Of a stretch of DNA of 20,325 nt, positions 1 to 20,300 are shown piece after piece. Under the pieces are notes generated by a model. The model was given only the letters and a program-made list of their open reading frames with translations, ran no database searches and was not told where the DNA came from. The position numbers were made by a program, and so were the translations under genes. Source of the DNA: Stramenopiles sp. TOSAG23-6 (lineage: Eukaryota > Sar); assembly GCA_900128565.1 (NCBI GenBank), contig LT636038.1, forward strand, positions 1-20,325. The letters run 5' to 3'. Position 1 is the stretch's first letter. Each line of letters opens with the position of its first letter.

Positions 1-63
1 TTTTTTTTCGTACGAAATTTTGTACCTAACGATTTTTTTTTGAAATATTTTTTCATCATACAT
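1..63 (+). repeat. Introner-like intron, copy 1 (3' part only)
   Basis: This is the 3' end of an intron of the nucleoside hydrolase gene, cut by the window start. It contains the palindrome TTTCGTACGAAA (6-17), the branch-like GTACCTAAC (22-30), a T9 run, GAAATATTTTTTC, and the terminal ATACAT shared with the copies at 2528-2615 and 11147-11237. The protein family motif (V)LGVTTVAGN begins directly after ACAT at 64. A canonical TTAG lies 7 nt further on (67-70). Splicing there would cost the family-conserved LG, so ACAT is preferred but not proven for this copy. It lies in the sense orientation of its gene. Confidence 0.75.
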
Positions 64-1032
64 GTATTAGGTGTCACAACAGTTGCAGGAAATATGGGAA
101 TTGAAGCTGTTACGGCTGCTACACTGAAAGTATTAGATGCGGCAGATGCTCCTATTTATTTACCTGTTGCAAAAGGATGTGAAGAACCATTAGTTGAACC
201 TTGTCATTTTTGTCCTCAGATACATGGTACAGATTCATTGGGCGATTTGAAACCACCATTACCATCGTCAAATCGAACTCTCGATGAAAGACATGCTGTT
301 ACTCTAATACTAGATAATCTTTTAGAAATTGATAAATCCAATGGAAAATTACCAAAAATGACTATAATAGCTCTTGCTCCATTAACGAATATTGCAATGG
401 CTATTCGTTTGAAGCCTAGATTGTGTAGACGTTCTATTCATCGAATTGTATGGATGGGTGGTTCGGCATTTGCTGGTGGTAATGCGAGTGCCTGGGCTGA
501 AGCAAATGCAGCCTATGACCCAGAAGCAGCTCATATTGTTTTTACCTCAGGTATCGAAATCATGTTATATACATGGGACGTATATCTAAAGGTGGAATAT
601 TCTTGGAAGGAACTTTTAGAATTAGGTGTAGTAGTATCAGAAAGTCCTATAGGTATAGGAAGTATAGGAAATGATAATGAAAAAGATGTTCCACCTACAA
701 GTGTAATGATATCGGATAAACTTAAGCCTTGGTCGTCTTTAGGATCTCGATTGCTTCTTAGAGATATGCGTTATTGGAAAAATAAAACTGCTCAAATTGG
801 AGATGCTGGTGCTGTTGCGGCTGTTATTGCACCTAATGCTGTGACTACAAAACATATGCACGTTTGTATCGAACTCCAAGGCAAGAATACGCGTGGAATG
901 ACTGTATGTGATCATAGACTATTTTCCACACCCCCAGATTTACCTATTTTGAAACCTAATGTACATGTATGTATTGATGTTGATGCAAATGCTATAAAAG
1001 ATGTATTCACATCAACACTGTTTAAAAAATGA
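64..1032 (+). CDS. Inosine/uridine-preferring nucleoside hydrolase family protein (5' partial)
   Basis: This encodes the C-terminal 322 residues of an IUNH-family enzyme. These enzymes hydrolyse the N-glycosidic bond of nucleosides to base and ribose, for purine/pyrimidine salvage. Visible family motifs are LGVTTVAGN at the start, an IHG segment near residue 55, ALAPLTNIAMAIRL, WMGG, and AEANAAYDPEAA, the counterpart of the ribose/calcium-binding AExNxxxDPEAA. The segment TTKHMHVCIELQGKNTRGMT matches the usual TTKxxxVxVExxGxxTRG. The N-terminal DxDxxxDD calcium-binding motif is absent because the first exon(s) lie upstream of the window. Oddities: the usual HD pair of the C-terminal active-site helix reads GD here (IGDAGAVAAV), keeping the calcium-ligand Asp but losing His. 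There is also a loop of about 35 residues (near residues 200-235) before it. The gene ends at TGA 1030-1032 and converges on the acyl-CoA dehydrogenase gene with a 61-bp gap. Family assignment is firm; substrate preference cannot be read. Confidence 0.88.
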   Translation, partial: VLGVTTVAGNMGIEAVTAATLKVLDAADAPIYLPVAKGCEEPLVEPCHFCPQIHGTDSLGDLKPPLPSSNRTLDERHAVTLILDNLLEIDKSNGKLPKMTIIALAPLTNIAMAIRLKPRLCRRSIHRIVWMGGSAFAGGNASAWAEANAAYDPEAAHIVFTSGIEIMLYTWDVYLKVEYSWKELLELGVVVSESPIGIGSIGNDNEKDVPPTSVMISDKLKPWSSLGSRLLLRDMRYWKNKTAQIGDAGAVAAVIAPNAVTTKHMHVCIELQGKNTRGMTVCDHRLFSTPPDLPILKPNVHVCIDVDANAIKDVFTSTLFKK

Positions 1033-1081
1033 AAGAATCTATAGATAACAAAATATGTTCAAGTGAGTATATTTATAATTT

Positions 1082-1087
1082 AATAAA
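1082..1087 (+). promoter_or_regulatory. Possible polyadenylation signal AATAAA
   Basis: AATAAA begins 50 nt after the nucleoside hydrolase stop codon and ends 7 nt before the stop of the convergent gene. The two transcripts would therefore overlap at their 3' ends. Whether this organism uses AATAAA is unknown. Confidence 0.3.
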
Positions 1088-1093
1088 CTTCGT

Positions 1094-3672
1094 TTACCAT
1101 CCAAGAGCACTACTAGTTTCTTTGCCTCGTGGTGCGTGAGGATCATTGTGATCAGAACTTCCACAAGATTTGATCGCGTGAACAAGGGTGTCCTCCACAA
1201 GATTAACATCAAATGATTCTGAACGCCTTATACGCTCGGAAGAGATACCAGGTGTGGTACTACTCACTAAGTGTTCATGAGGATGAACCAGTTGCTCAAA
1301 TGCATCAACTTGGATTATGTCCTCTCTTAACTTTTCGGCCACGTCGAGTTTTGCCTGTTCTTCAATAGTGGCGTCACGCTTTTCTTTACGCAATTTCGAT
1401 AAAATTTTATCTCCTTCAATACATTTTGAAAATGCTTCATTGATTTGACTTACTCTATCTAAGGGATTCTCTGAAATAAACACACTTTCAGACAATAATT
1501 TTCGAATTTCAGATTCAGTAGTAATTAATTGAGAAGTAGCACGAACTAATCCATCACTTGGTACAGAATATGCACGACCTAATGGAAATGAAATACCTCG
1601 CATCAAGAACCCTATGGGACGTACGGGGAAATTATCAAAAATGCCGTAAAATGCATCTTCTATATCATGTGTTATTTGGGTCAAAGCATGATCAATAATA
1701 GTATTCGTTTGTTGTACATTATTTTTCTTAGCAAACCATAAGACAGAATATCCTAAATATAGATTAGATAATATATCAGCATATCGACCGGACAGTTGTT
1801 CTGCGGTTTTTAATCGACCACCTAATATAAGTCCTAAATCCGTTGTTACTGCAAACGCAGCAGATAGGCGATTTAGTTGAGATTCGTGAAATCTTGAAAT
1901 GTCTGATTTAGATCTTGTACGAGTTATAGCTTGGCTAAACGCTCTGAAAGCATTAGTAGTGCCATGTCCTAATAAACTTCTTACATGTTTTGAAAATCCT
2001 TTTTTATCATCTCCCTTTGAGATTGAAGCAATTAGATCTTGCATATGAGGATGCGCACGGTTTAGCCCTTGACCAAACACAATTAATGATCGGGTAAGAA
2101 TATGTAATCGAAGAGAAATATTTCATTTGTTTTTTTGTTAGGTACAACATTTACTACGAAAATAAAATTGAGATTTTTTTTTGGAAACGGACATTTGCGC
2201 CTTCGACAGTAATTGCGACTGGCATTGATTGATATTTTGAAGCCATATAATTCATAGGTCCTTTACAAATTCCTGCACCGCCTATGACGTCCATAGCATC
2301 ATTCCCTACAGTTCTACCCATCTCCGTACATTTTAACTTCATTATCGCGGATAAAACTGGAGGTCTTTCATGTTGACCCACAGCAGCATTAAATAGATGT
2401 TGCGATGCAGTGCATGTGTATGCTAGAGATGCGATTCTTGCTAACCTTTCTTGGATGCCTTCCATCTCCGCAATGGGAACCTTGAACTGCTTTCTGATTC
2501 TAGCATATCCTCCAACAGCATTGACGCATGTATTTTGAAAAAATATTTCAAAAAAAACGTTAGGTACAAACTTTCGTACGAAAAACAATCGAAATTGAAA
2601 AAAAATAAAACATACACAATTGAGCTATACCACCTGCTGATGCAGGTAAAGATATTCCCCTACCTTCCCCTAGGCATTCCATAAGCATATTCCAACCAAA
2701 CCCAGTGCGTTCTTGACCACCAACAACGTTTGTTAATGGTATAAACACATCACGTCCACGGACAGGTCCGTTCATGAAACCGGCATCGATGGGGTTATGC
2801 CGCGCTCCAGTTAAAAGTCCCTTGTGTCCTTTATCTAACAAGCAAACGGTAATGCCTTCACTTCCAACGCCCTTTAAGAGTCCATTTGGGTCCTTGACAT
2901 CAATTGCAAGACCTATTAGAGTAGCTACAGGGGCGAGTGTTATATAACGTTTATTAAAAGTAGCTTTTACACCTAAAACGCCATTCTGCTCACAAACAAT
3001 ACCAACATCGCGCATAGAAGCAGCGTCAGAACCTGAAGATGGCCCGGTGAGTGCAAAACATGGAATGTCAACTCCAGTAGCTAACCGAGGTAAATAATGT
3101 TTCTTTTGTGAATCAGTGCCGTATTCTCGTAATAGCTCAGCTGGGCCCAAAGAATTAGGAACCATGACAGTAACAGCGGCGCATATTGAACGCGTAGCAA
3201 CTCGCTGTAACATAACTGAATGAGCATGCGCAGAGAATCCTTTACCACCGTAATCTTTGGAGATACACAAGCCAAGGAAGCCTTTCTCCCTAATATAACT
3301 CCAAACCTCTGGTTTCAAATTTTGGTCCAAACTTACTTGATAATCATCAATCATTTCGCACAGAGTATTAACTTCGACGTCAAAGAAAGATTGTTCTTCG
3401 GTAGTAAATCCAACATCATATTTGTCCACAAGTTTTTGTAACGATGGTGATCCGGAAAATATATCCCGATCAAACCCTACAGTCCCAGAATCCAGAGCTG
3501 CTTGTTCCGTTGCAGATATCTTTGGCATAATTCGTTTGGCAAAATTATACAACGGTCCCACCACAAAAGTTCGGCGGGTGTTAAATATGGGACTAATTGA
3601 AGAATGAAACTGGAGTATCCTCCGAGATTTGCCTATACGTATGCTTCGGCCCAACATTTTTGGACTAATCAA
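1094..3672 (-). CDS. FadE-type acyl-CoA dehydrogenase, mitochondrial-like, three exons
   Basis: The coding exons are 3672-2616, 2527-2193 and 2101-1094, which join in frame to 799 aa plus TAA. The length is close to bacterial FadE. It is an FAD-dependent enzyme of the first beta-oxidation step (acyl-CoA to trans-2-enoyl-CoA). Residues 1-48 are rich in Arg/Ser with few acids, like a mitochondrial presequence; ATGs at residues 1 and 6 are both possible starts. SATEQAALDSGTVGFDRDIF (about 53-72) opens the FadE-like body. CFALTGPSSGSDAASM (205-220) is the acyl-CoA dehydrogenase signature, NKRYITLAPVATLIGLA (240-256) the FAD/substrate region, and GRGISLPASAGG (337-348) leads into intron 1. VEGAN (460-464) carries the presumed catalytic Glu461. 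ILTRSLIVFGQG then leads into the long FadE-specific C-terminal domain (DUF1974-like). Both introns are the introner-like repeats: intron 1 in phase 1, intron 2 in phase 0 right after VEGAN. Without removing them the frame is broken by stops. Some ACAD paralogue substrate range is possible; chain length cannot be inferred. Confidence 0.92.
2102..2192 (-). repeat. Introner-like intron, copy 4 (divergent), in the acyl-CoA dehydrogenase gene
   Basis: This 91-nt intron lies between the codons for VEGAN and ILTRSL. It starts GTCCGTTTCC and ends GATTACAT. It retains the branch-like GTACCTAAC (complement of 2137-2145) and GAAATATTTC, but the palindrome has decayed (TTTCGTAGTAAA) and an A-rich stretch replaces the T8 run. 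Exon 2 ends at 2193 and exon 3 begins at 2101; only one base (T) is ambiguous at the joint. No AG occurs at a position that would keep the conserved ILTRS motif. It is the most diverged of the four copies. Confidence 0.85.
2528..2615 (-). repeat. Introner-like intron, copy 2, in the acyl-CoA dehydrogenase gene
   Basis: This 88-nt intron starts GTATGTTTTATT and ends AATACAT. In order it holds TTTCGTACGAAA (2572-2583), GTACCTAAC (complement of 2559-2567), T8 and GAAATATTTTTTC. Splicing joins ...GGIAQL to CVNAVGGYARIRKQF, the uninterrupted family sequence, in phase 1. The boundary is ambiguous by a shared TG. The only AG inside is far upstream of the joint (in GAAAGT). It is closely similar along its whole length to the intron at 11147-11237 in a different gene. 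Confidence 0.92.
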
Positions 3673-3732
3673 GAAGAAAATAGAAAATCAATTTAATGAA
3701 ACAGTAGGTAAAATATTTTGTCAGTTCCAGTG

Positions 3733-3808
3733 CTTGGCCAATAATGGCCAAGGTTGCGCAATACAACTGAAAATGACAGCTGTCGTCGCGCATTATTATC
3801 GATCGATA
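3733..3808. promoter_or_regulatory. Cluster of palindromes upstream of the acyl-CoA dehydrogenase start
   Basis: Three perfect inverted repeats lie 61-136 bp upstream of the ATG at 3672. CTTGGCCA and TGGCCAAG flank a 4-base ATAA loop (3733-3752, including CCAAT at 3738-3742). GACAGCTGTC (3775-3784) contains the E-box-like CAGCTG. TATCGATCGATA lies at 3797-3808. Their spacing fits transcription-factor sites in the promoter of the minus-strand gene, but no factor can be assigned. The whole gap 3673-3899 holds no ORF of note. Confidence 0.35.
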
Positions 3809-3869
3809 CCCGGAACCCGGCTCGATATATATTATTATCTCATAAATTAAAAAAAAATGTTATTATTTG

Positions 3870-3879
3870 TTTATTTATT
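3870..3879 (-). promoter_or_regulatory. Possible polyadenylation signal, two overlapping AATAAA
   Basis: On the minus strand AATAAATAAA lies 21-30 nt past the stop codon of the NnrU-like gene. This is a plausible 3'-end signal. It is suggested only by motif and position. Confidence 0.3.
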
Positions 3880-3899
3880 CACTGGTATAGTCGTTATAT

Positions 3900-4853
3900 T
3901 TAGTTCAAAAGATTTAATCTAGCTGCACCAAGTGCAAGAGGGAGTGATACAAAAAACAAAGTTCTATTTCTGCGAATGTTCAATATTCCAGCAAAAAATA
4001 TGGCAAGGGAAACATTTGACCACTTCATCTCATGTCTAAGGATATTCCACGACTGTTTACCTGAAAATAAAGCAAGAAATGGAATATTAGACGTCACTGC
4101 ATCTACTTCTGGAGTCAATATACCACCTGATCTATTCCGATATCTATGATCTTGATGCTCTCCACCAATAAAAGCAAATACTGTAGGAAAGGAGAATAAT
4201 ACTATAGTGGGTACAAAAGGAGATGCTATTGCTGTACCTAAACCTAATGAAGCAAACGACCATAGGGCAGGATGCCTTGTGACGCGCTCTAAACCATATA
4301 TGTCATTATTGTTCGGTTTTTTGGAAGAAAAGTCAAATGGACATCGAGCCACCCAGACCTCTTTTGCTTTAGTTGATGAACCAGTTGCTACAGCGCTAGT
4401 GTCCCTTGATAAGAGAACACCAGAGCTAATATCAGACACACTTAGCATGCCATTTGATGGTAAAGTATTTTGGGGTATACTGTCGCCTAGTGCGGATTTG
4501 TTATTTGCAATATATGATTGTAAACCAAAAGGAAACTGAACTTTTGGCAACAATTGTGAAAAACCGATGAGTCCAAGTCCTTGGAACGCAAAAGAAGACA
4601 AAGTTATAGCTACTCCTGCGCGGCCATGCCATAATCGTGGACCGACCCCGTAACCATATTTACAGTAGCCCCACAGAATTGATCCACATGCTGCGGTTGA
4701 TAGGACATTGTACACACCATGATACGTCTGCTTACCAAAGTTACTTATCAGATAGTCGCGATTATGGGACACAACAACATTCTCTAGAATGAAAGCACTC
4801 CAGCCCAATCCTATCCAACGAACACCCCGATGTGATAATATTGCTTGCAACAT
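3900..4853 (-). CDS. NnrU / 15-cis-zeta-carotene isomerase (Z-ISO) family membrane protein
   Basis: This is a single-exon gene of 317 aa. The N-terminal third matches the NnrU start: a hydrophobic helix (about 11-27) containing the conserved H30 region, then the FGKQTYHGVYNVLSTAACG segment and helices near 47-63 and 81-101. After a polar Ser/Asn/Lys-rich insert (about 113-185) come GLERVTRHPALW (187-198), a long hydrophobic stretch (199-229), GGEHQDHRYR (230-239) and IPFLALFSGKQSW (257-269). These are the conserved family blocks, and the His residues in TRHP and GEHQDH are the likely haem/metal-ligand region. A last hydrophobic segment lies near 299-312. In plants and algae Z-ISO is a haem b enzyme that isomerises 9,15,9'-tri-cis-zeta-carotene. 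Bacterial NnrU is linked to denitrification. Which role applies here is not visible, and I see no clear plastid leader. The family call is good; function is open. Confidence 0.78.
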   Translation of the reverse strand: MLQAILSHRGVRWIGLGWSAFILENVVVSHNRDYLISNFGKQTYHGVYNVLSTAACGSILWGYCKYGYGVGPRLWHGRAGVAITLSSFAFQGLGLIGFSQLLPKVQFPFGLQSYIANNKSALGDSIPQNTLPSNGMLSVSDISSGVLLSRDTSAVATGSSTKAKEVWVARCPFDFSSKKPNNNDIYGLERVTRHPALWSFASLGLGTAIASPFVPTIVLFSFPTVFAFIGGEHQDHRYRNRSGGILTPEVDAVTSNIPFLALFSGKQSWNILRHEMKWSNVSLAIFFAGILNIRRNRTLFFVSLPLALGAARLNLLN

Positions 4854-5309
4854 CTATGATGTGATGTGGCAAATCAGAGATTGTGAGAATGGTTTGAATA
4901 TAAATGATCCCTGGAATATATAATTAATATATAATTATAATGGAACACAAGACTGGTGCATAACGGAGTACCTACGGGTATTAGTGAACTGGATGAATCC
5001 GATTGATTTGAGATTCGCGGTCACCGTATTTTTGCTATCTGAAATTCTGAATTTCTGAAAATCTTGATTCGTGTGGATGGAGCCTTAGTTATTACTATAA
5101 ATTTTATGGTTTTGTGTGTCATTTTAGTATTTTACTTGATAATTTTATATTAGTTATTGAAATGTTCCTGTTCCGAGGAGATATTTTGCACATATTAAAA
5201 ATATATTGAAAATAATTTAGTTTAAAATGAAAAAAAATAGCAATGCCCAATATTATATTACGTAATAAATATCTCATGGTTGATTTTATATCAATAAAAA
5301 AAACTAAAA
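4854..5309. other. Intergenic region, no gene seen
   Basis: This 456-bp AT-rich gap lies between the start of the NnrU-like gene and the 3' end of the giant gene, all on the minus strand. It must hold the NnrU-like promoter and the giant gene's 3' UTR. An AT-only stretch near 4915-4941 lies about 60-90 bp upstream of the ATG at 4853 and could be a TATA-like region. Short ORFs here are low-complexity and were not called. No RNA gene was recognised. Confidence 0.6.
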
Positions 5310-8300
5310 TTACATCCATCCTGCATCTTGCTCATTATCGTTATAAAATCCATTATTTGTTTCATCTTGATCCACATCATTTGCTTTACCACCAGTTGGA
5401 TCTTGCCATACGACATCACCAAAGACGCTATGCACCCAACATGATTTCCCGTGAGGTTTTGAGAATGTCTTCTTCCAGCCTGTAGTTGGCATAGCATTTG
5501 CAGTATCCGCGTGAGTATGTCGGGCAAAGACAATGACACGATCTCTCTGTCCAGCTTGTCGCAACAAATCTATTGCAGCACTAAATTTTGTCTCGCGAAG
5601 ATCTTTTCCGTCTATACTTATAACATGCATTCCAATACTTACTCCTGCATCCTCCACAGGGCTACCACCGGCACTTTCAGGACGGAAGCTTTTTACTTTT
5701 AAGCCTTTCTTTCTTCCTGGAATCTTCATAAAATCGGTGAAAGAAGATCCCGTTTTTAATTCTACATCAATTATATTATCACCACTTGATTTCAAGATTT
5801 CGCGACATGAATCTGTTATTACTGATGCAGCTCGTTCAGGGGTAGCAAATACTAAATATCTCGTTTGTTGTGAGCAATCTTGCAAAGCAACAGTGACATC
5901 AAGCTGGGGCATATTTCTTACATCTTTGCCATTGATACTAACTAAAAACATTCCTACTTTAGCACCTGCTCGTTCTACTGGGCTACCTCCCTTATCAGCC
6001 GGTCTAAAGCCTGTGACGCGTACACCAGTAGGATGGTGTTTTATTTTTCCAACCATCATACAAGCTGGGCCAGGAGAAAGTAGCACATGAACCACGCCAG
6101 GGGCTCCTTTTCCAAACGATAATTTCATCCCCTTTTCGTTTTGCCCTTTTTGTTGCAATAGAATTGTAATTGTTTCAAATGATGTCGTAGTTACATCATT
6201 ATCATCAACACGAAGCAATCGCTGTCCAGGTATAACACCCTTATTTCTCAAAATTGAATGTTCTGTTATACTATTTACTGTAGCTCCTATGCCGTCGTTA
6301 GTTGTTGCTACCACGCCTATTCCTAATTTTACACCTTGTGGAATATGGATGGAATCAATCATCGCTGCTTCACCATCACGATTGATGTGCATAACTCCGC
6401 CACTTGAAACATTCATTGTGATACTCTTTGATTTCTTAATATTAAAACCAGAACTAGGAAATACTTTACTGCTATTTTTGGCTGATGCTTTTCGTCTGAG
6501 TAATATAAGACGTTGAACTCCTTTGACAAGGCGAGTTTGTTTGACAGATGGGTCGCGCCATACAACACTACCTGTAACGTCATTAACCCAATAAAACTTT
6601 TGTTTACCTTCGGCCCAGTATTTACTCCAATTTTGCTCTTCTTCTTCTTCCTCTTCTTCTTTCTTCTCAAATGATGTAAGTGCTATCAATTTCTCACATA
6701 TCGGATCCGCAATTTTCCTACGACATGGAGGGATCATAAAAATAACAATTACAAAACCTAATAGGACTACAGCAATATTCACTGTTACAAGCATACTACC
6801 AAGCATACCATTCTCACCATCTACAGAATCACTCGCAATCAGTAAACCTGAGAAGAAAATGAAAAATAGTACAATCAATAGACACTGTTGTAAAATGTCA
6901 TCAATATCTGAATGATATGGGTGTGTATTCATAGCCAACATCATAAACACTACGGTTACAACAAGACCACATGCGCTTCGTTCAATCTCATCCCCAGCCA
7001 TACTGATTCCACCAGTCATTAAAGCTTTACGTAAAAGCTCGGAGCATTCAAACCACCAATACTGGCGTTCATACTGCATGAAAAGAGACCCAAAAACGCG
7101 TATAGATCGATGATAATGTTTGTTACTATCATGAACCCTACGTTCTTTCTCGTCCATTCGGTCTGGGTGTATAAGAAGGTCACGACGATTGTACATCAAA
7201 ATGAGATACAATAAAGGAACTCCAACAACAAATAAACCAATTCCAGCCGTTGCCATTAAATGCATTTGTGCATATACAGGGTTATCGTCACTACATTCAA
7301 TACTAGCATCAGCTCGTAGATACCTTTTATCATTAATAGAGAAACAATTGAAAACACGGAAACAACGAGTAGTAAGGCCGGGGTACATTAAAAACACCAC
7401 CACATTGAAAAATATAAGTGCTTCATCCCTTGCACTTAAAATTGTATACCGTAGTCTTGGAACAATTTTTTTGCCAATATAGCAAATACAATAAACTAAA
7501 AATAACACCAATGAGAAAAATGGTAATACGCTCACATGGGCCACGAAGCCGCCAGCAAAGTCTGTTGAAAAATCACAGGCCGAAAAATCCGTGAGCACCG
7601 CCATGAAGTCCATATTAACCATTTTGAATTGATCAAACAATGCAACAAATTCCGGAGGAAAATTGACTCCCAATGTAAATTGGAGTTGTGAAACGACTTG
7701 CATGTGCGATACAACTTGGCGCATTGTTGCCATTAATTGGTAATATTCCCCCATTCCGCCGCGTCCACCTGCTGATGCCATCTTGCCACCAGAATCTTCC
7801 GCGGCACCTAGTAACATATCAGCACGACGCTCATTGTCTTCTTCATCTCCTATATCCTCTACGATTTTCGTTTCTTTGGGAGTTGGCATTTTCTTTGTAC
7901 CTTCTTTCATTAAAGTTTGAACATCAGTTGCTTTTAAAGCTTTTGCTCTAGCGGCTACGTCTCTTCTATGACGTTTTAAATTTTTTTTTTGCTCACTTTT
8001 CCCAGTAGTCGTCTCCTTTCTGATTGCGTGTACCCATTCGGAATAAGTCACTACGCCATCCCCATCTACATCAATAGTCTCAACCATTAAATCAACGAGA
8101 CGAGCATCCATACCACGCTTTAATAAGCCAGACTTAAGCTCGATTTTGCTGACAGTACCAGAGTTATCTTTATCAAGATAATTGAATGTCTCTCTTGGAT
8201 TTATATCTTTAGTGTCAACTTCTTCAAAAGGTGGCCTTTTACAAAGAAGAAGAAAAGCTATTATGACTGTGCAAATAGTTGCTACAATTGCTGCATAAAA

Positions 8301-11300
8301 AAGACCTCCGGAGGATTGCCCGCCTGGGCAAAATGTGCACCGCATACCATCGCTGGTGCGAACATAGTTCTTATCACATAATCCACATATAGGACCCTTG
8401 TAACCTTTTGTACAATTAGACCAATTCGTGTGTTCTTCGGTAATAACCCCATTACCGTCATCATGTAGCTCACTTGGACACATTCCAATATATGCCCAAT
8501 AGTTTCCAGCATTTTCACAGCTTTCCTTGTCGGTGACATCAGCAATGACTTCTTCACAAGTAGTTATTGCATCTAGAGATGCTCCTATCTCAGGTCTACA
8601 AGTTTGACACTCAAACTCATCCAATAAACAAGGCAAAGGATCTAAATCTTGAGGATTATCAATAAAAAAATCGCGATCTTGCCAGAAGCCAGCTTTTATA
8701 CTTAATTTTGCAGAGTCCAGGTTTGTATTGTAAGCCAGGCCGTCTGTCATACATACCATCTGTAATTATAAAATATCAAAGTAAAAACTATGTTAGATAA
8801 CTAAATGGGGTAATTTTAAAATATAATAGTGAAAGTAATGAAAAGCTATCAAATCAATATAATATCTACTACGTACACTATCAGCACATCTTGTACAAGA
8901 AATTGCATCAGAGTCATGATTAGATAATGTATCAAGCTTAATACGTGTCGGGATACTGATGTTGTAGTGTGTGGCAAAATAAGCAGCATTTTTTTTGAAT
9001 TGATTTTTCTCTATTAATTTTTTGGAATCCTCTATCATTTGTTCCAAATCTGCAAGATGGCCAAAATAACCTCGTGGACACTGACAACGCTTTCTGTCTA
9101 AATCACCCTCTGCTTCTATTCCGGGACAATCGCCCTCATATTTTGTTCCTTCTGGGCAAAATTTTTTCTCAGCACATTCCATCTTCACTGAAGAAGTTTG
9201 GCAAAAATAGCCCTCGGGGCACAGCCCAGTTTCAGTCGATCCAGCTTCACAGTACCCTCCTTTAACCGAATCACCACACATTTTTATTGTAGATGATTGA
9301 GTGCAGAAACTTCCTGCAGGACACAAAGTTGGAATTATCGTTCCCAGAGGACAATAAAACTGTCTGCCATTATGAATGCCACCCTTAGCAGGACCAGCTC
9401 GTACGGCATCTGAAAGATCATACTCATAATCAGACCAAACACCTTTCATACCATTTTGGTTATTCTCGCATAACGCTTTTGTGTCCCGCTTTTCATACCA
9501 AATGCCATCAGGCTCACAATTAGCTGCAGTTTTCTCTGTGAGTACTCTATCCTCCAACATAAGATTTTTACTTATACATGTATCTGTGCTCACATTGATA
9601 TTTCCAATCATACAACCCGCATAGGGGTAATCACAAGAAAATTTAAACTTGCCCTCTTCACAGTAAAACCCGACTGGACATTCTATAGGAAGCATCGTTT
9701 TCTCTGGACAAAACCAACCCGTATCAGCATCGCGAAGGAAAACATCAATAGCAAGGGGGTTGTATACACAAGATTTTTTTACAGAGGAAGTTGTGCAATA
9801 AAACCCAAGAGGGCATGGACTTCTTGCAAAACTACCTCTGGCACAAAATTCAGCATTTCCTTCATCTGATGTACATAAAGTCTGAACTTTTGAATCGGGG
9901 CAAAATGATCCTAACGCACACTGGTTTCCTCTATCAGAGCCTTCTGGGCAGTAATAAGCTGTGGTACCATCGGTATTAAGTGGACTAGTTGGATCGGCAG
10001 GATTATCAAGAGTACTATCATCACAAGAGTATTTGTATCTACCTTCCTCGCAATAATACCCTTCGGGACATAGTACTGGACCCTTACTGTTTCCAGGACA
10101 ATACCAAGCTTTTGTATCTTCTGCATTATTTTGCAATACATTGTCAGGATGCTCAGGATCATACACACAACTCTTCTTGATATTAGAAGTCGGACAGTAA
10201 TAACCTGGTGGGCACTGCGTAGGTGCAGATGAACCTTCTTCGCAGTATGTGCCATCATCAGGACATTTCACTTCTGTTTTCGATGTCTCGCATTTATACC
10301 CAGCTCTACATTTTGAGGGTGCCATCGATCCAGCAGCACAATAAAACGCAATATTTTGGACAATGATTGAGTTAGGATCTTTAACTGGGTCATTTGCAGA
10401 GTTATCACATGAATACTTGAATTTTCCTGAACTACAATAAAATCCTACTTCACATTGTATCGGAGTGGTATTTCTACCTGGACAATACCAAGCTATAGTG
10501 TCATTTTGAAGTAATATATCCGGCTCATTCTCATTCCACTCACAACTCATTTTTGAAGCTGGAGAAGGACAGTAATATCCTTGGGGGCAATCTTGTGCAG
10601 ATGATGAGCCAAGAGGGCAGTGGTCTCCATTGCTACAAGCGATTTCTTCTCGCGAATTTGGGCATCTATACCCAGGTTTGCATCTCTCTGATCCATGACT
10701 ACCTGTAGGACAATAAAACGAGTCATACACCTGCCAAGAACCTGAGAATAACTTTATATTGGGTGGCGTACTGCATAAGCCCGCATCTATTAGATCAACA
10801 GAATCAATTGCTCCCTTGTTATCGACTGTATAATCTGCGAGAGGAAGTTTAGAACATTCTCCGCCTGAAAATTCTATCTGCCCAGGTATATATCCTGTGC
10901 CTTTTGAAGGAAGAGTGACTTCAACCCCTATTGGATTCAGCTTAAATACAAGCTTCGCATTATTTCCACTGTTATCATCAGCTATACTTGCCGATGGGGG
11001 TACGGTACACTTCACTGTTCCTGGATTGTCTAAGACAATGGGTGAAATGATTGCGCCTTCAGCTGTAACTGTCAATGATGCGACTGGATATACTGTGCAT
11101 GTCCCCCCAGTAAACACAACCGGTGCAACAGTATAACCAGTACCACATGTTTTTTGGAAAAATATTTAAAAAAATAATCGTTAGGTACAAAATTTCGTAC
11201 GAAAAAAAAATCGAATTTGAAAAAGAATAAAACATACAATCTGTACACGAAAGTTCACCTGATGTTGGTTTTAGCGAAATTTGAAGCACTGCGGTTGACC

Positions 11301-17300: not shown

Positions 17301-20300
17301 TTACATTATTTATTTCCTTGGACATGTTCAATCGAATGTGATACTTTCTTCCTGGAAGGATATTGTAATCCTTTTTTTGACTTTTCACCAACTCATTTTT
17401 TTGCTGCGTTAAAAGTAGTATCCTTTGCAACATTGATTGCTTCATACACAAATTCTTGATTAGCTGCATCAGTCGGTAGTGCAACAAGAGAGTAGGTAAC
17501 TACTGCATAATCATCTGAGTGAGGAAAATCATTTATGTGATTAACTGTCGAAGGTTTTTGTTGGTTTGCGCCATTGCTTACCATGTTCGAAGTGTCAAAT
17601 TTTTCCTTCGAAGTGGGATTTACGTATACTGTGTTGCCGGATTTGTAAAACACAACACCAGTTGCACCACTTCCAGTCTGAGATAAAATATCATGATTTT
17701 TAAATTGAATGGATGTGAATTCCAATACTACAATTCCCCAAGCATCAATTGTGACATCGGAATGGAATGGTATTTTGCCCATCCCATGTGATACTATCGT
17801 CCAAGTACCTCGTCCGTTGGCAACTTCACATGACTCTACGTCTGGCCTAGCATAACTCCATGTTCCTTTGAGAACGTAATCTTGATTCTCACATTCATCC
17901 TTTGAATATCTGTCTGAGATTGTGTCGTGTCGATTATACCATGTTCCATCTTCTGCGTCACATGCTGTTTTATTTCCCACTGTCACAACCGATGTTCCAC
18001 CTGAAGACACACATGTATCAGCTGAAACAATGCAAATATCTCTAATTGCATTATATGGTGAGCCACCATCTGCTGCAGTGACAGTGCACTCATAATGAGC
18101 CCCACATCGGGTATCTTGAATGGGCGAGGATGTCTGGCAGTTATTTCCACTAAATCCCAATGCACATGAACACTTTGAACAAACATTATTATTAATATTT
18201 CCTGTACAAAGACCATTTCCACAGCAAAGTCTATTTGCCGGACATATTTGAGTTTCACAATTATTATCTTTAGAATAATCTTCCACGCCATCTCCATCAA
18301 TGTCCAAACAATCACAACCTTTAGGCTCTCCAAGTGTAATAGAAGAACCAATGTTCATGACCGGAATGCATATTTTAGGACTCGTGTGGCATTTCAATCC
18401 AACAGCACAATCTGTATGACCATTTGGGCATGCACTACCTAGAGTTTTTTTGCATGTTTTAGACTCGTCGCATTCTAACCCGTTTGCACATGTATATCCA
18501 TCTAATGAGCAATCAAACCCAAGCTGGCCAACACATGAATGATAATCATTAGAAAGTGTGTAACCATTTATACAAGTGCAAGTATATCCCTTCTGGGATT
18601 CTTCTGTGCATGAACCAGCACAATTTAAATGACGGTATCGTCTATCAGTATTGTATGAACATATACCTTGTCCAGCAATTTCTAATTGTTCTAATGTAAT
18701 ACCTGGGGGGCAAGACAAGCATTTAGATGACGAGCCGTCATTATCAGTACATGTCAAACAGCTTGCATGGCATTGTTTTGGTGCAGCATGTTCTGTACAC
18801 TCATTCACAGCTGTAGTAGCCGGATATGTCCTTGACGTTTTTTGGAAGGTTATTGTCCCGCTACTTTGATAGTATCCTGTATAAGCTTCACACCATGGCT
18901 TTTGATACACCGTACTATCAGCACGGTCTTTCATATTTGCTCCTAATTTTCGATATCTGCACTTTCCACCTCTCACGTCAAAGGCAACACACTGGTTCAC
19001 TGAGTTACAATGATCGATACATGAAGTTACGTCTGATGAATTTATGGTGTGTGTGGTCAAAAGCAGACTAGTGTAACTTTTATTATCTAATTTCGTATAA
19101 TTTGTTTCTCCAAATGAGCCAGTATGTACAATCCCATTATTACACTCGAGAGGGACACACTTATATCCATGTGGACTAGATGCAGTAGGAGTAAAATCGT
19201 TTGGCATATGTGTCCCGGATGGGCAATTCGTGCACGCCTGAGACCCAGGAGCCGACCATGAGTGATCTGGACAATTATGACACGTCCTATCATCTGAAGA
19301 CCATTTAGTCTTTGTGGGACACAAAGGACATGCCGCAGAATGTCCAACTAGGGAATATTTTCCTTCTCCACATTGAGTGCATGCTGTTGTAGGGTCGTGG
19401 TCTGAGTCAGTGTAACCAGCTGAGCATTGTGTACATTGTGTAGCACCTAATGGTAAATCTACATAACTCCCTTTGGGGCAGTCTTGGCAGCTAGTAGCTA
19501 ATGTCACTGGGTTATATTTTCCTTTTGCACACTCAGAACAAGCATTGGATCCTGATTGACCTGGTTTAGATGCAATCTTCCCTGCTGTACAAAGGGTACA
19601 TGGCGTCCTTGATGAATTTTCCATGTTAGTAGAGTCATCGTCTGCGTATCCTATTGGACATGGATTGCATGATAATGCAGAGCTTTCTGTTTCGGGCATT
19701 GGGAGTGTAAAAAAAAGATGACTGGTGTTGTCATCCTCCATTGTTGAAAACTTTTCTTCAAGAGTTACCTCGCGGATTTCTTCGTTGTATGCAGTGATTT
19801 TCCGAGTTTCGCCCGAAGAAGTTTGTCTCAATAATGTGTTTACAAGCGAACCACCTACAGTTGGAGAACTTGGAAGTATAAAACGGCGTTTGGTTACTTT
19901 GGTTAACTTTTGAGTTGTACCAGTAGGAAGACGGCCAGTCTCATGACCATGAGGACATGTTATACACTCTGTCTGTGGGTTGCTATCATGATCGTATGTA
20001 CCAAGTTCACATGGAGTACACATCGTTTTGCTTGCATTTAGGTAACTACCAGCGGGACAAACTTTGCAACCAATCGTATCAACCCAATTTTTATTATTAC
20101 CACAAGTTAGACGAGCTGCATTTCGTTTTAGGGATATATTAGTTAAAGAAACTTTCCCAACATCAACAATATGATATGGCGTTGTTTCTTTAGTGTGAAA
20201 TTTATTACTATTCCACTCAGCAGAATTTTGTTTCGTCACGGTTGGGCTTTTACCTAGATATATAAGTTTCATTTGCGAGAAATGTGCTCCATGGTGAAAC

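What the first reader, a model, noticed from the sequence alone, without database searches (positions are those of the whole stretch)
1..11237. Dispersed introner-like element family: four intron copies of one sequence in three unrelated genes
Introns at 1-63 (cut by the window edge), 2102-2192, 2528-2615 and 11147-11237 share an ordered set of blocks: GTATGTTTTATT (diverged in copy 4; not visible in copy 1), TTTCGTACGAAA, GTACCTAAC, a T tract, GAAATATTT and a terminal ACAT. Copies 2 and 3 can be aligned end to end although they lie in an acyl-CoA dehydrogenase and a giant receptor. All are in the sense orientation of their host gene. Unrelated introns do not normally share sequence, so dispersal of an intron-generating element is the simplest reading. 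Four copies in 11 kb, and four of the five introns seen, suggest a large genomic family. Introner elements are established in some protists and algae; whether this particular family is described I cannot tell.
Basis: partly seen in the sequence, partly recalled or inferred. Interest (0 to 1): 0.92.

Follow-up and report, generated by a model that had tools for sequence, protein, structure and literature searches.

The report
Jumping introns that break AG rule
An unidentified protist's genes are riddled with copies of one roughly 100-base jumping sequence that appears to be cut out of messages as an intron, although most copies end in AT instead of the AG that introns normally end with.

Summary
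The family is real and large. A core pattern has 666 exact matches in the 8.03-Mb assembly, none in the reversed control. Profile hits in a 220-kb sample (160; 0 in reversed sequence) scale to roughly 2,300-2,500.

Copies run GTATGTTTT...CTAAC...AAAATAC between a 2-bp direct repeat, mostly AT, which matches in 57 of 69 copies (permutation maximum 51 of 100,000) and in 9 of the 18 whose 5' repeat is not AT. Of 71 anchored copies, 64 have both flanks coding in sense, none both antisense. Removing element plus one repeat leaves an open frame in 64 of 70 (16-22 for lengths off by 1 or 2; 8 unspliced). Homologues align gap-free across 8 junctions in five genes.

Best reading: MITE-like introners whose target duplication supplies a non-AG 3' splice site. 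No RNA data were available; the host is unidentified.

The parts
1..63 (+). Element copy 1 (3' part only; starts before the window), intron in a nucleoside hydrolase gene, ends ...CATACAT
   Evidence: The exon from base 64 matches PF01156 from its first residue.
64..1032 (+). Nucleoside hydrolase (IU_nuc_hydro) exon downstream of copy 1, stop codon included
   Evidence: PF01156, E 1.7e-61, residues 1-312
1094..2101 (-). Acyl-CoA dehydrogenase exon 3 (stop included)
2102..2192 (-). Element copy 2 (diverged), 91 nt, GT...AT, flanked by AT/AT
   Evidence: homologues gap-free across the junction
2193..2527 (-). Acyl-CoA dehydrogenase exon 2
2528..2615 (-). Element copy 3, 88 nt, GT...AT, flanking dinucleotides GT/AT
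   Evidence: homologues gap-free across the junction
2616..3657 (-). Acyl-CoA dehydrogenase exon 1 (start codon at 3657)
8760..8876 (-). Ordinary GT-AG intron (117 nt, GTACGTAG...TTACAG, CTAAC 32 nt before its end) in the giant receptor gene: the internal comparison
11147..11237 (-). Element copy 4, 91 nt, GT...AT, flanking dinucleotides TT/AT, in the giant receptor gene
   Evidence: spliced frame of 3,993 codons with the GT-AG intron also removed

Best explanation
These are introners: a short non-autonomous DNA-transposon (MITE-like) family that makes an intron wherever it lands in a gene. The element is GTATGTTTT...TTTCGTACGAAATTTTGTACCTAAC...AAAATAC, about 86-125 bp, with a very short inverted repeat GTAT/ATAC. 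It inserts at YAT|G-like sites and duplicates 2 bp, usually AT. In the transcript the element supplies a GTAYGT donor and a CTAAC branch motif, and excision runs from that GT to the end of the 3' copy of the duplicated dinucleotide, so the original coding sequence is restored exactly. Because the duplicated dinucleotide is the last one of the intron, most copies are GT-AT and few are GT-AG. Shown here: the dispersed family, the covarying 2-bp repeat, the sense orientation, the exact and frame-restoring excision unit, and the shared donor and branch-like motifs. Inferred: that removal happens in RNA, that the ordinary U2-type spliceosome does it, and that a transposase acting in trans moves the element.
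For:: 666 exact core matches, 0 in the reversed control; 836 matches to the 3' end with at most 1 mismatch (reversed control 1); nearest-neighbour identity quartiles 0.85/0.89/0.92 among 69 copies; shuffled-partner control maximum 0.68; repeat matches in 57 of 69, permutation mean 41.9, maximum 51 of 100,000; 9 of 18 among copies with a non-AT 5' pair, never reached in 100,000; 58 of 70 junctions fall inside spliced stop-free frames of at least 150 codons; 64 of 71 both flanks sense, 0 both antisense; 51 of 64 in frame (p 3.6e-14); 64 of 70 open at the exact length. Gap-free homologue alignments at 8 junctions: acyl-CoA dehydrogenase 2, SHMT 2, TPP enzyme 2 of its 3, RNA polymerase I subunit 1, ABCC transporter 1. 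The predicted protein of relative P0019 (76% identical) is continuous across both dehydrogenase sites (its DNA was not seen). CTAAC in 63 of 69, median 41 nt before the end; the two clearest GT-AG introns have it at 32 and 37 nt; a PROCN (Prp8) domain in a 2,021-codon open frame.
Against: There is no RNA evidence of removal. No U2 or U6 snRNA was found, but the control rang nowhere, so this says little. No transposase carrying these ends was found: the one DDE_3 (Tc1/IS630-like) gene lacks them. Terminal inverted repeats are only about 4 bp. Twelve of 69 copies have mismatched flanking dinucleotides, and one of these (C1:22995) has a stop with every cut tried. Six of 70 copies are not open after excision. 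Sense-only orientation and no clear intergenic copy are not what untargeted transposition predicts. RNAalifold found no consensus structure. Some diverged copies end in AG, so AG may be preferred where present.
Confidence: 0.76

Rival explanations
1. Same introner family and same mRNA, but the true cut lies 1-2 nt upstream within the duplicated dinucleotide, giving AT-AC (or TG-CA) introns: |ATGTATG...ATAC|.
For: Where both dinucleotides are AT (48 of 69) the products are identical, so the sequence alone cannot decide. AT-AC is a known compatible pair of ends (recalled). Seven of the 12 mismatched copies do not discriminate.
Against: Four of the 12 mismatched copies discriminate, all against the AT-AC-type cut: L042:8051 (stop), C50:5439 (stop; weakly anchored end), L050:2403 (the GT cut keeps NH in ADMLNH, a conserved SET-domain motif by recall), L037:6950 (S instead of Y in FRSVHRG). 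Two of the four, C50:5439 and L050:2403, also speak against the TG-CA cut. The donor GTAYGT fits a normal U2 site.
Confidence: 0.12
2. Removal is not spliceosomal: a nuclease/ligase-type reaction guided by the terminal pairing (A)UGUAU/AUACA(U), in the manner suggested by the end-pairing of Amoebophrya and Hemistasiidae non-canonical introns, or elimination at the DNA level.
For: About half (6 of 12) of the printed single-sequence folds show the terminal stem. The 3' ends ignore AG.
Against: GTAYGT and CTAAC are kept, and CTAAC lies at much the distance seen in the GT-AG introns. AG is depleted between CTAAC and the end (19 observed, 40.7 expected) and, in 17 of the 18 copies that have one, lies within 16 nt of CTAAC, which would fit spliceosomal scanning, though shared ancestry of those copies could also explain it. 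No consensus fold was found.
Confidence: 0.1
3. No transposition: the organism simply has strong shared intron signals that make unrelated introns look alike.
For: Some diverged introns share only GTAYGTTTT, the branch motif and CACAATACAT (my reading of the printed sequences).
Against: End-to-end identity up to 95.6% between copies on different contigs; a covarying 2-bp repeat outside the shared signals; non-signal blocks such as GAAATATTTTTCC are shared.
Confidence: 0.05
4. The element copies are unspliced insertions in pseudogenes, or the real 3' splice site is the next AG in the exon.
For: An AG occurs a median 12.5 nt into the exon.
Against: Using that AG leaves an open frame in 30 of 70 copies against 64; read-through is open in 8. 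The exon just after ACAT is conserved coding sequence, e.g. VNAVGGYARIRKQF in the dehydrogenase. The host genes tested read as intact after excision.
Confidence: 0.03

Closest known systems
Introner elements with TSD/TIR in Micromonas, Aureococcus, Symbiodinium, Chrysochromulina and others (Huff et al. 2016, recalled only; Gozashti et al. 2022, PMC9860276, passages read)
   Same: Many similar introns in unrelated genes; in some families one splice site comes from the element and the other is co-opted at the insertion site or from the TSD (the Chrysochromulina family carries its 5' site and co-opts its 3' site); in most, no change in mRNA length.
   Different: In the passages read, families have GY-AG ends and previously characterised TSDs of 3-9 bp (4 bp in the Symbiodinium and Chrysochromulina families). 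Here the TSD is 2 bp, mostly AT, so the 3' end is non-AG.
Non-canonical introner elements of the parasitic dinoflagellates Amoebophrya A25 and A120 (PMC7789003, passages and section 11 read)
   Same: Abundant repeated introns without GT-AG ends, direct repeats at the borders, inverted repeats, intron gain on a genome scale.
   Different: There: 8-20 nt inverted repeats, 3-5 nt direct repeats, no clear signature at the first and last two nucleotides, 252 and 1,954 families. Here: a GTAYGT donor, a CTAAC motif, 2-bp repeats, about 4-bp inverted ends, one dominant superfamily. The host is not such a dinoflagellate if the mitochondrial contig is its own.
Non-canonical introns of hemistasiid diplonemids (PMC12621601, abstract and section 5 read)
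   Same: Nearly all introns non-GT-AG while a U2 spliceosome is present.
   Different: There the ends are highly variable with no conserved donor, are capable of extensive pairing and rarely carry the branch motif (2.4 and 6.8%); no dispersed element family is described in what was read.
Non-canonical splicing in tunicates such as Fritillaria (PMC13326754, abstract start and passages read; AG-A(N) ends per a passage of PMC7789003)
   Same: Most introns escape GT-AG and are still spliced.
   Different: There donors also change. Here the donor mostly stays GTAYGT and the acceptor is free.

Membership tests
Introner element | Group of introns of similar sequence in unrelated genes | tested here: met
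   copies in nucleoside hydrolase, acyl-CoA dehydrogenase, SHMT, RNA polymerase I, ABCC and other genes
Introner element | Similarity stops at the intron borders | tested here: met
   base -3 and the first base beyond the repeat vary; only a Y..G preference
Introner element | Precise removal from transcripts | not testable with these tools
   Indirect support only:
Introner element | GT/GC/GA-AG splice sites (as in annotated introners) | tested here: not met
   2 of 69 end in AG; 92 of the first 100 listed of 434 end in AT. Not required by the broader definition used for Amoebophrya.
MITE-type DNA transposon | Target site duplication | tested here: met
   57 of 69, permutation maximum 51 of 100,000
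MITE-type DNA transposon | Terminal inverted repeats of about 10 bp or more | tested here: not met
   Only GTAT...ATAC plus T/A runs
MITE-type DNA transposon | Autonomous partner with the same ends | tested here: inconclusive
   One DDE_3 transposase without these ends; only one transposase family was searched, in a partial assembly
Amoebophrya-type non-canonical introner | 8-20 nt inverted repeats, 3-5 nt direct repeats, no donor consensus | tested here: not met
   2-bp repeats and a GTAYGT donor (GTATGT 48 and GTACGT 9 of 69)
U12-type (AT-AC) intron | AT-AC ends with the U12 donor ATATCCTT | tested here: not met
   Donor region ATGTATGTTTT; 4 of 12 mismatched copies speak against the AT-AC cut; U12 consensus recalled
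U2-type spliceosomal intron | GT donor, branch A motif, AG acceptor | tested here: not met
   Donor GT in 60 of 69 and CTAAC in 63 of 69, but AG acceptor in 2 of 69

The most novel reading that the evidence does not exclude
In this lineage one transposon family has rebuilt most of the intron complement and at the same time relaxed the near-universal AG rule: the spliceosome takes GTAYGT and CTAAC as usual, then cuts at the dinucleotide that the insertion happened to duplicate (AT, GT, TT, CT, GG, AA, AC or AG) two bases past the element's conserved ATAC. The 3' splice site is then set by transposition rather than by a splicing consensus, and ageing copies may drift towards GT-AG.
Probability: 0.5. 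Interest if true: 0.86.

Novelty: new variant of a known kind. Interest (0 to 1): 0.74.

Why it matters
Introners are a leading explanation of mass intron gain, but the TSD-type families in what was read here land so that a GY-AG intron results. A family with its own donor and branch motif, and an acceptor dictated by a 2-bp duplication, would be a natural experiment on how much the AG of the 3' splice site really matters. It would also explain how non-canonical introns can spread without prior loss of splice signals. GT-AG-based gene finders would miss such introns, so similar families may be hidden in other single-cell and environmental genomes.

Tried and rejected
Host identity: the eukaryotic 18S model did not complete usefully. 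A universal rRNA motif led to a contig with a full-length bacterial-type SSU rRNA, an atp9-like frame and nad2 with TGA read as Trp, taken as the mitochondrial genome. The nad2 search gave one 100% match of unnamed origin; the rest of the 120 listed are 42-78% identical, those above about 61% over part of the query only, nearly all unnamed (two named, Microheliella and Ancoracysta, at 43 and 42%). A dehydrogenase tree of 38 rows that I picked from the 120 listed leaves the window protein with one uncultured relative on a long, unplaced branch. The mitochondrial contig speaks against a dinoflagellate (their mitochondrial gene content is recalled), but no group is assigned.

Spread to viruses or prokaryotes: 0 exact matches in viral contigs for the core or the 3' end, and 0 in genome contigs for the core.

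RNA structure: RNAalifold on 66 copies gave energy 0.0, no better than shuffled columns; gaps in the T-rich arms make this a weak test. snRNA searches for U2 and U6 found nothing, with no working control.

Published description: searches of the held PMC library showed no paper that, in its listing or in the passages read, describes GT-AT introners or this family. Most subscription papers are not held. The single-cell papers PMC5778133, PMC8163842 and PMC8599508 were searched for intron/splice passages only; none of the passages shown describes such introns.

Rows dropped: one search anchored 76 of 135 hits, 5 of which had impossible lengths, leaving 71. That anchoring required a T before the element and was replaced, which kept 69 of 135 with both ends and no such requirement. 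Searches use those 69 plus window copy 2 (70). One search folded 66 of 69. Palindromic and duplicate contigs (C2, C4, C13/C14, C27, C37) inflate the genome-wide counts; these were not corrected. The 220-kb sample was chosen largely for being rich in hits, so its density is not representative. The genome-wide estimate assumes that the sample's share of hits bearing each pattern is typical, and a copy split into two hits would inflate it.
Full report
WHAT WAS CHECKED. Three are on the minus strand inside minus-strand genes, and one, cut by the window edge, is on the plus strand inside a plus-strand gene. The hosts are a nucleoside hydrolase (PF01156), an acyl-CoA dehydrogenase that holds two of the copies, and a giant membrane protein with EF-hand and PDZ domains. 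The copy with the diverged start is 2102-2192, not 11147-11237 as the finding says. A fifth intron at 8760-8876 is an ordinary GT-AG intron.

FAMILY SIZE. The window lies in an assembly of 8,027,113 bases in 408 contigs. The core TTTCGTACGAAA-N(0-8)-GTACCTAAC has 348 + 318 exact matches there and none in the reversed control. The 3' end TTTTTCCAAAATACAT has 437 + 399 matches with at most one mismatch (reversed control 1). From a 219,788-base sample with obvious duplicates removed (one 718-base overlap remained), a profile from 12 seeds gave 135 hits at E <= 1e-3. A second-round profile gave 160 hits at E <= 0.01. Both gave 0 on the reversed sequence. Of the 160, 59 carry the 3' pattern and 43 the core, which scales to about 2,270-2,480 hits in the assembly, a rough figure since the sample was chosen for hits. 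Perfectly palindromic stretches in C2 and C4 (C27 and C37 by symmetry of hits) and the near-identical pair C13/C14 suggest a single-cell-type amplified assembly, so raw counts are somewhat inflated. Several contigs start or end inside a copy, as does the window.

ANATOMY. Among 69 copies with both ends, the first six bases are GTATGT in 48 and GTACGT in 9, and the last three bases of the element proper are TAC in 53. Lengths including one dinucleotide are 88-127 nt, median 101. The two bases before the element and the two after it are AT/AT in 48 copies and covary in others: GT/GT 3, TT/TT 2, GG/GG, CT/CT, AC/AC and AG/AG 1 each; 12 pairs differ. The match is 57 of 69, against a permutation mean of 41.9 and maximum of 51 in 100,000; among the 18 copies whose 5' pair is not AT, 9 match, never reached by permutation. 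This is a 2-bp target site duplication. Base -3 is a pyrimidine in 49 of 69 (p 1.6e-4) and the base after the duplication is G in 35 of 69 (p 1e-8), so the preferred target is YAT|G. Among the first 100 listed of 434 genome-wide exact 3' ends, the dinucleotide is AT in 92, TT in 4, AG in 2, AC in 1 and GG in 1 (duplicates not removed). For the slightly longer end AAATATTTTTCCAAAATAC, 29 places continue with a base other than A and 36 with AG, AC or AA (12, 15 and 9).

GENIC, SENSE AND EXACTLY REMOVABLE. Of 71 anchored copies, the best coding frame is sense on both 90-nt flanks in 64, antisense on both in 0, and mixed in 7. A segmentation into coding and non-coding gave, for 135 hits, 56 with both flanks sense, 45 with one sense and one unlabelled, 23 with neither labelled, 9 at sequence edges, 1 sense/antisense and 1 with both antisense, the last a weak 32-base partial hit; at random positions both orientations were common and 10.8% had neither flank coding. 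Many of the 23 lie in clusters of closely spaced copies, where exons are too short to be labelled; I did not resolve each one. Removing the element plus one dinucleotide leaves a stop-free sense frame through 75 + 75 nt in 64 of 70 copies. Lengths differing by 3 or 6 do about as well (57-64), as expected; shifts not divisible by 3 give 16-24, read-through 8, the next exonic AG 30, and the spliced antisense strand 14. Splicing all copies gives 37 stop-free frames of at least 150 codons, spanning 58 of 70 junctions. Homologues fix the position. The dehydrogenase aligns without gaps across both junctions to six relatives and to ACAD9. SHMT aligns without gaps across two junctions, a TPP enzyme across two of its three, the third lying beyond the alignment, RNA polymerase I subunit 2 across one and an ABCC transporter across one. 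The predicted dehydrogenase of an uncultured relative, P0019, 76% identical, is continuous across both sites, which suggests recent gain; its DNA was not seen and loss in the relative is not excluded.

THE UNUSUAL PART. These introns mostly do not end in AG. In 12 copies the two dinucleotides differ, and in 4 of them the coding sequence discriminates between cuts. L050:2403 keeps NH in ADMLNH only with the cut NN|G...ACNN|. C50:5439 is open only with that cut, though its end is weakly anchored. L042:8051 has a stop with the AT-AC-type cut. L037:6950 reads FRSVHRG rather than, with the AT-AC-type cut, FRYVHRG. Seven do not discriminate, and C1:22995 has a stop with every cut. So the intron most likely starts at the element's first base (GT in 60 of 69) and ends with the 3' copy of the target dinucleotide. 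CTAAC is present in 63 of 69 copies, 31-55 nt (median 41) before the end; in the two clearest GT-AG introns it lies 32 and 37 nt before the end. AG between CTAAC and the end is depleted (19 observed, 40.7 expected by composition); 18 of 63 copies have one, and in 17 of these it lies within 16 nt of CTAAC. This fits recognition by the ordinary spliceosome with an AG-independent last step. A Prp8 domain is present in a 2,021-codon open frame. Of 90 short same-strand gaps between predicted coding segments, 58 contain a profile hit. Of the other 32, by my reading of the printed sequences about 18 are diverged members ending in forms such as CACAATACAT or CACAATACAG, and only about three look like unrelated GT-AG introns; the rest are probably intergenic or not introns.

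MECHANISM AND RIVALS. The most likely account is a MITE-like introner with a 2-bp duplication. That the duplication supplies the last intron dinucleotide follows from the sequence. That removal is at the RNA level, and spliceosomal, is inferred. The AT-AC alternative gives the same mRNA for the majority class and is disfavoured only by four mismatched copies. A non-spliceosomal reaction cannot be excluded without lariats. Simple sharing of signals is contradicted by identity up to 95.6% between copies on different contigs and by the covarying flanks. The lack of antisense or clearly intergenic copies is unexplained; it may reflect selection, targeting of transcribed DNA, or an RNA-linked insertion route. 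No transposase with matching ends was found, but only one transposase family was searched.

COMPARISON WITH THE LITERATURE. Introners with TSDs that supply one splice site are established (PMC9860276, passages), with GY-AG ends and 3-9 bp TSDs in what was read. Amoebophrya has non-canonical introners with longer inverted and direct repeats and no donor consensus (PMC7789003, passages and section 11). Hemistasiid diplonemids have almost only non-canonical introns with variable ends (PMC12621601, abstract and section 5). Tunicates have mass escape from GT-AG (PMC13326754, abstract start and passages). A GTAYGT donor and CTAAC motif combined with a transposition-dictated, mostly AT, acceptor was not found in the searches made, which cover only an openly licensed part of the literature.

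Noticed in passing
G000:C2 (L034), C4 (L008/L009), C27, C37; C13/C14 (L038-L041): Stretches of C2 and C4 are perfect inverted repeats and C27 and C37 show mirrored hit positions; C13 and C14 are near-identical. This is typical of multiple displacement amplification of a single cell.
   Followed up: partly
window 1; contigs C11, C15, C23, C29, C30, C46: Several contigs begin inside an element copy, so the family itself seems to break the assembly and copies at contig ends are truncated.
   Followed up: no
L052 (G000:C136 around 4436): Contig with full-length bacterial-type SSU rRNA, an atp9-like frame and nad2 with TGA read as tryptophan; probably the host's mitochondrial genome, with only distant named relatives.
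   Followed up: partly
L054 (G000:C298:6479-6913): Tc1/IS630-type DDE transposase in an open frame of 432 codons; its flanks do not carry the element ends.
   Followed up: partly
L001 near 1460; L042:4183-4363: One copy follows a sequence that looks like the 3' end of another copy, and one intron has several branch-like motifs in a row: possible nested or tandem introners (twin introns).
   Followed up: no
C35 minus strand (reverse-complement 6009-6128), L016 minus strand (reverse-complement 112-240): Two diverged copies end in CACAATACAG or AATCCAG, i.e. GT-AG, as if old copies drift towards the canonical acceptor.
   Followed up: partly
window about 17319-17401 (-): The giant receptor frame shifts near an A7 run; probably an assembly or sequencing error in a homopolymer.
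   Followed up: no
The 220-kb sample: No clearly intergenic copy and no well-supported antisense copy was seen among 135 hits (23 had neither flank labelled coding), which untargeted transposition would not predict.
   Followed up: partly
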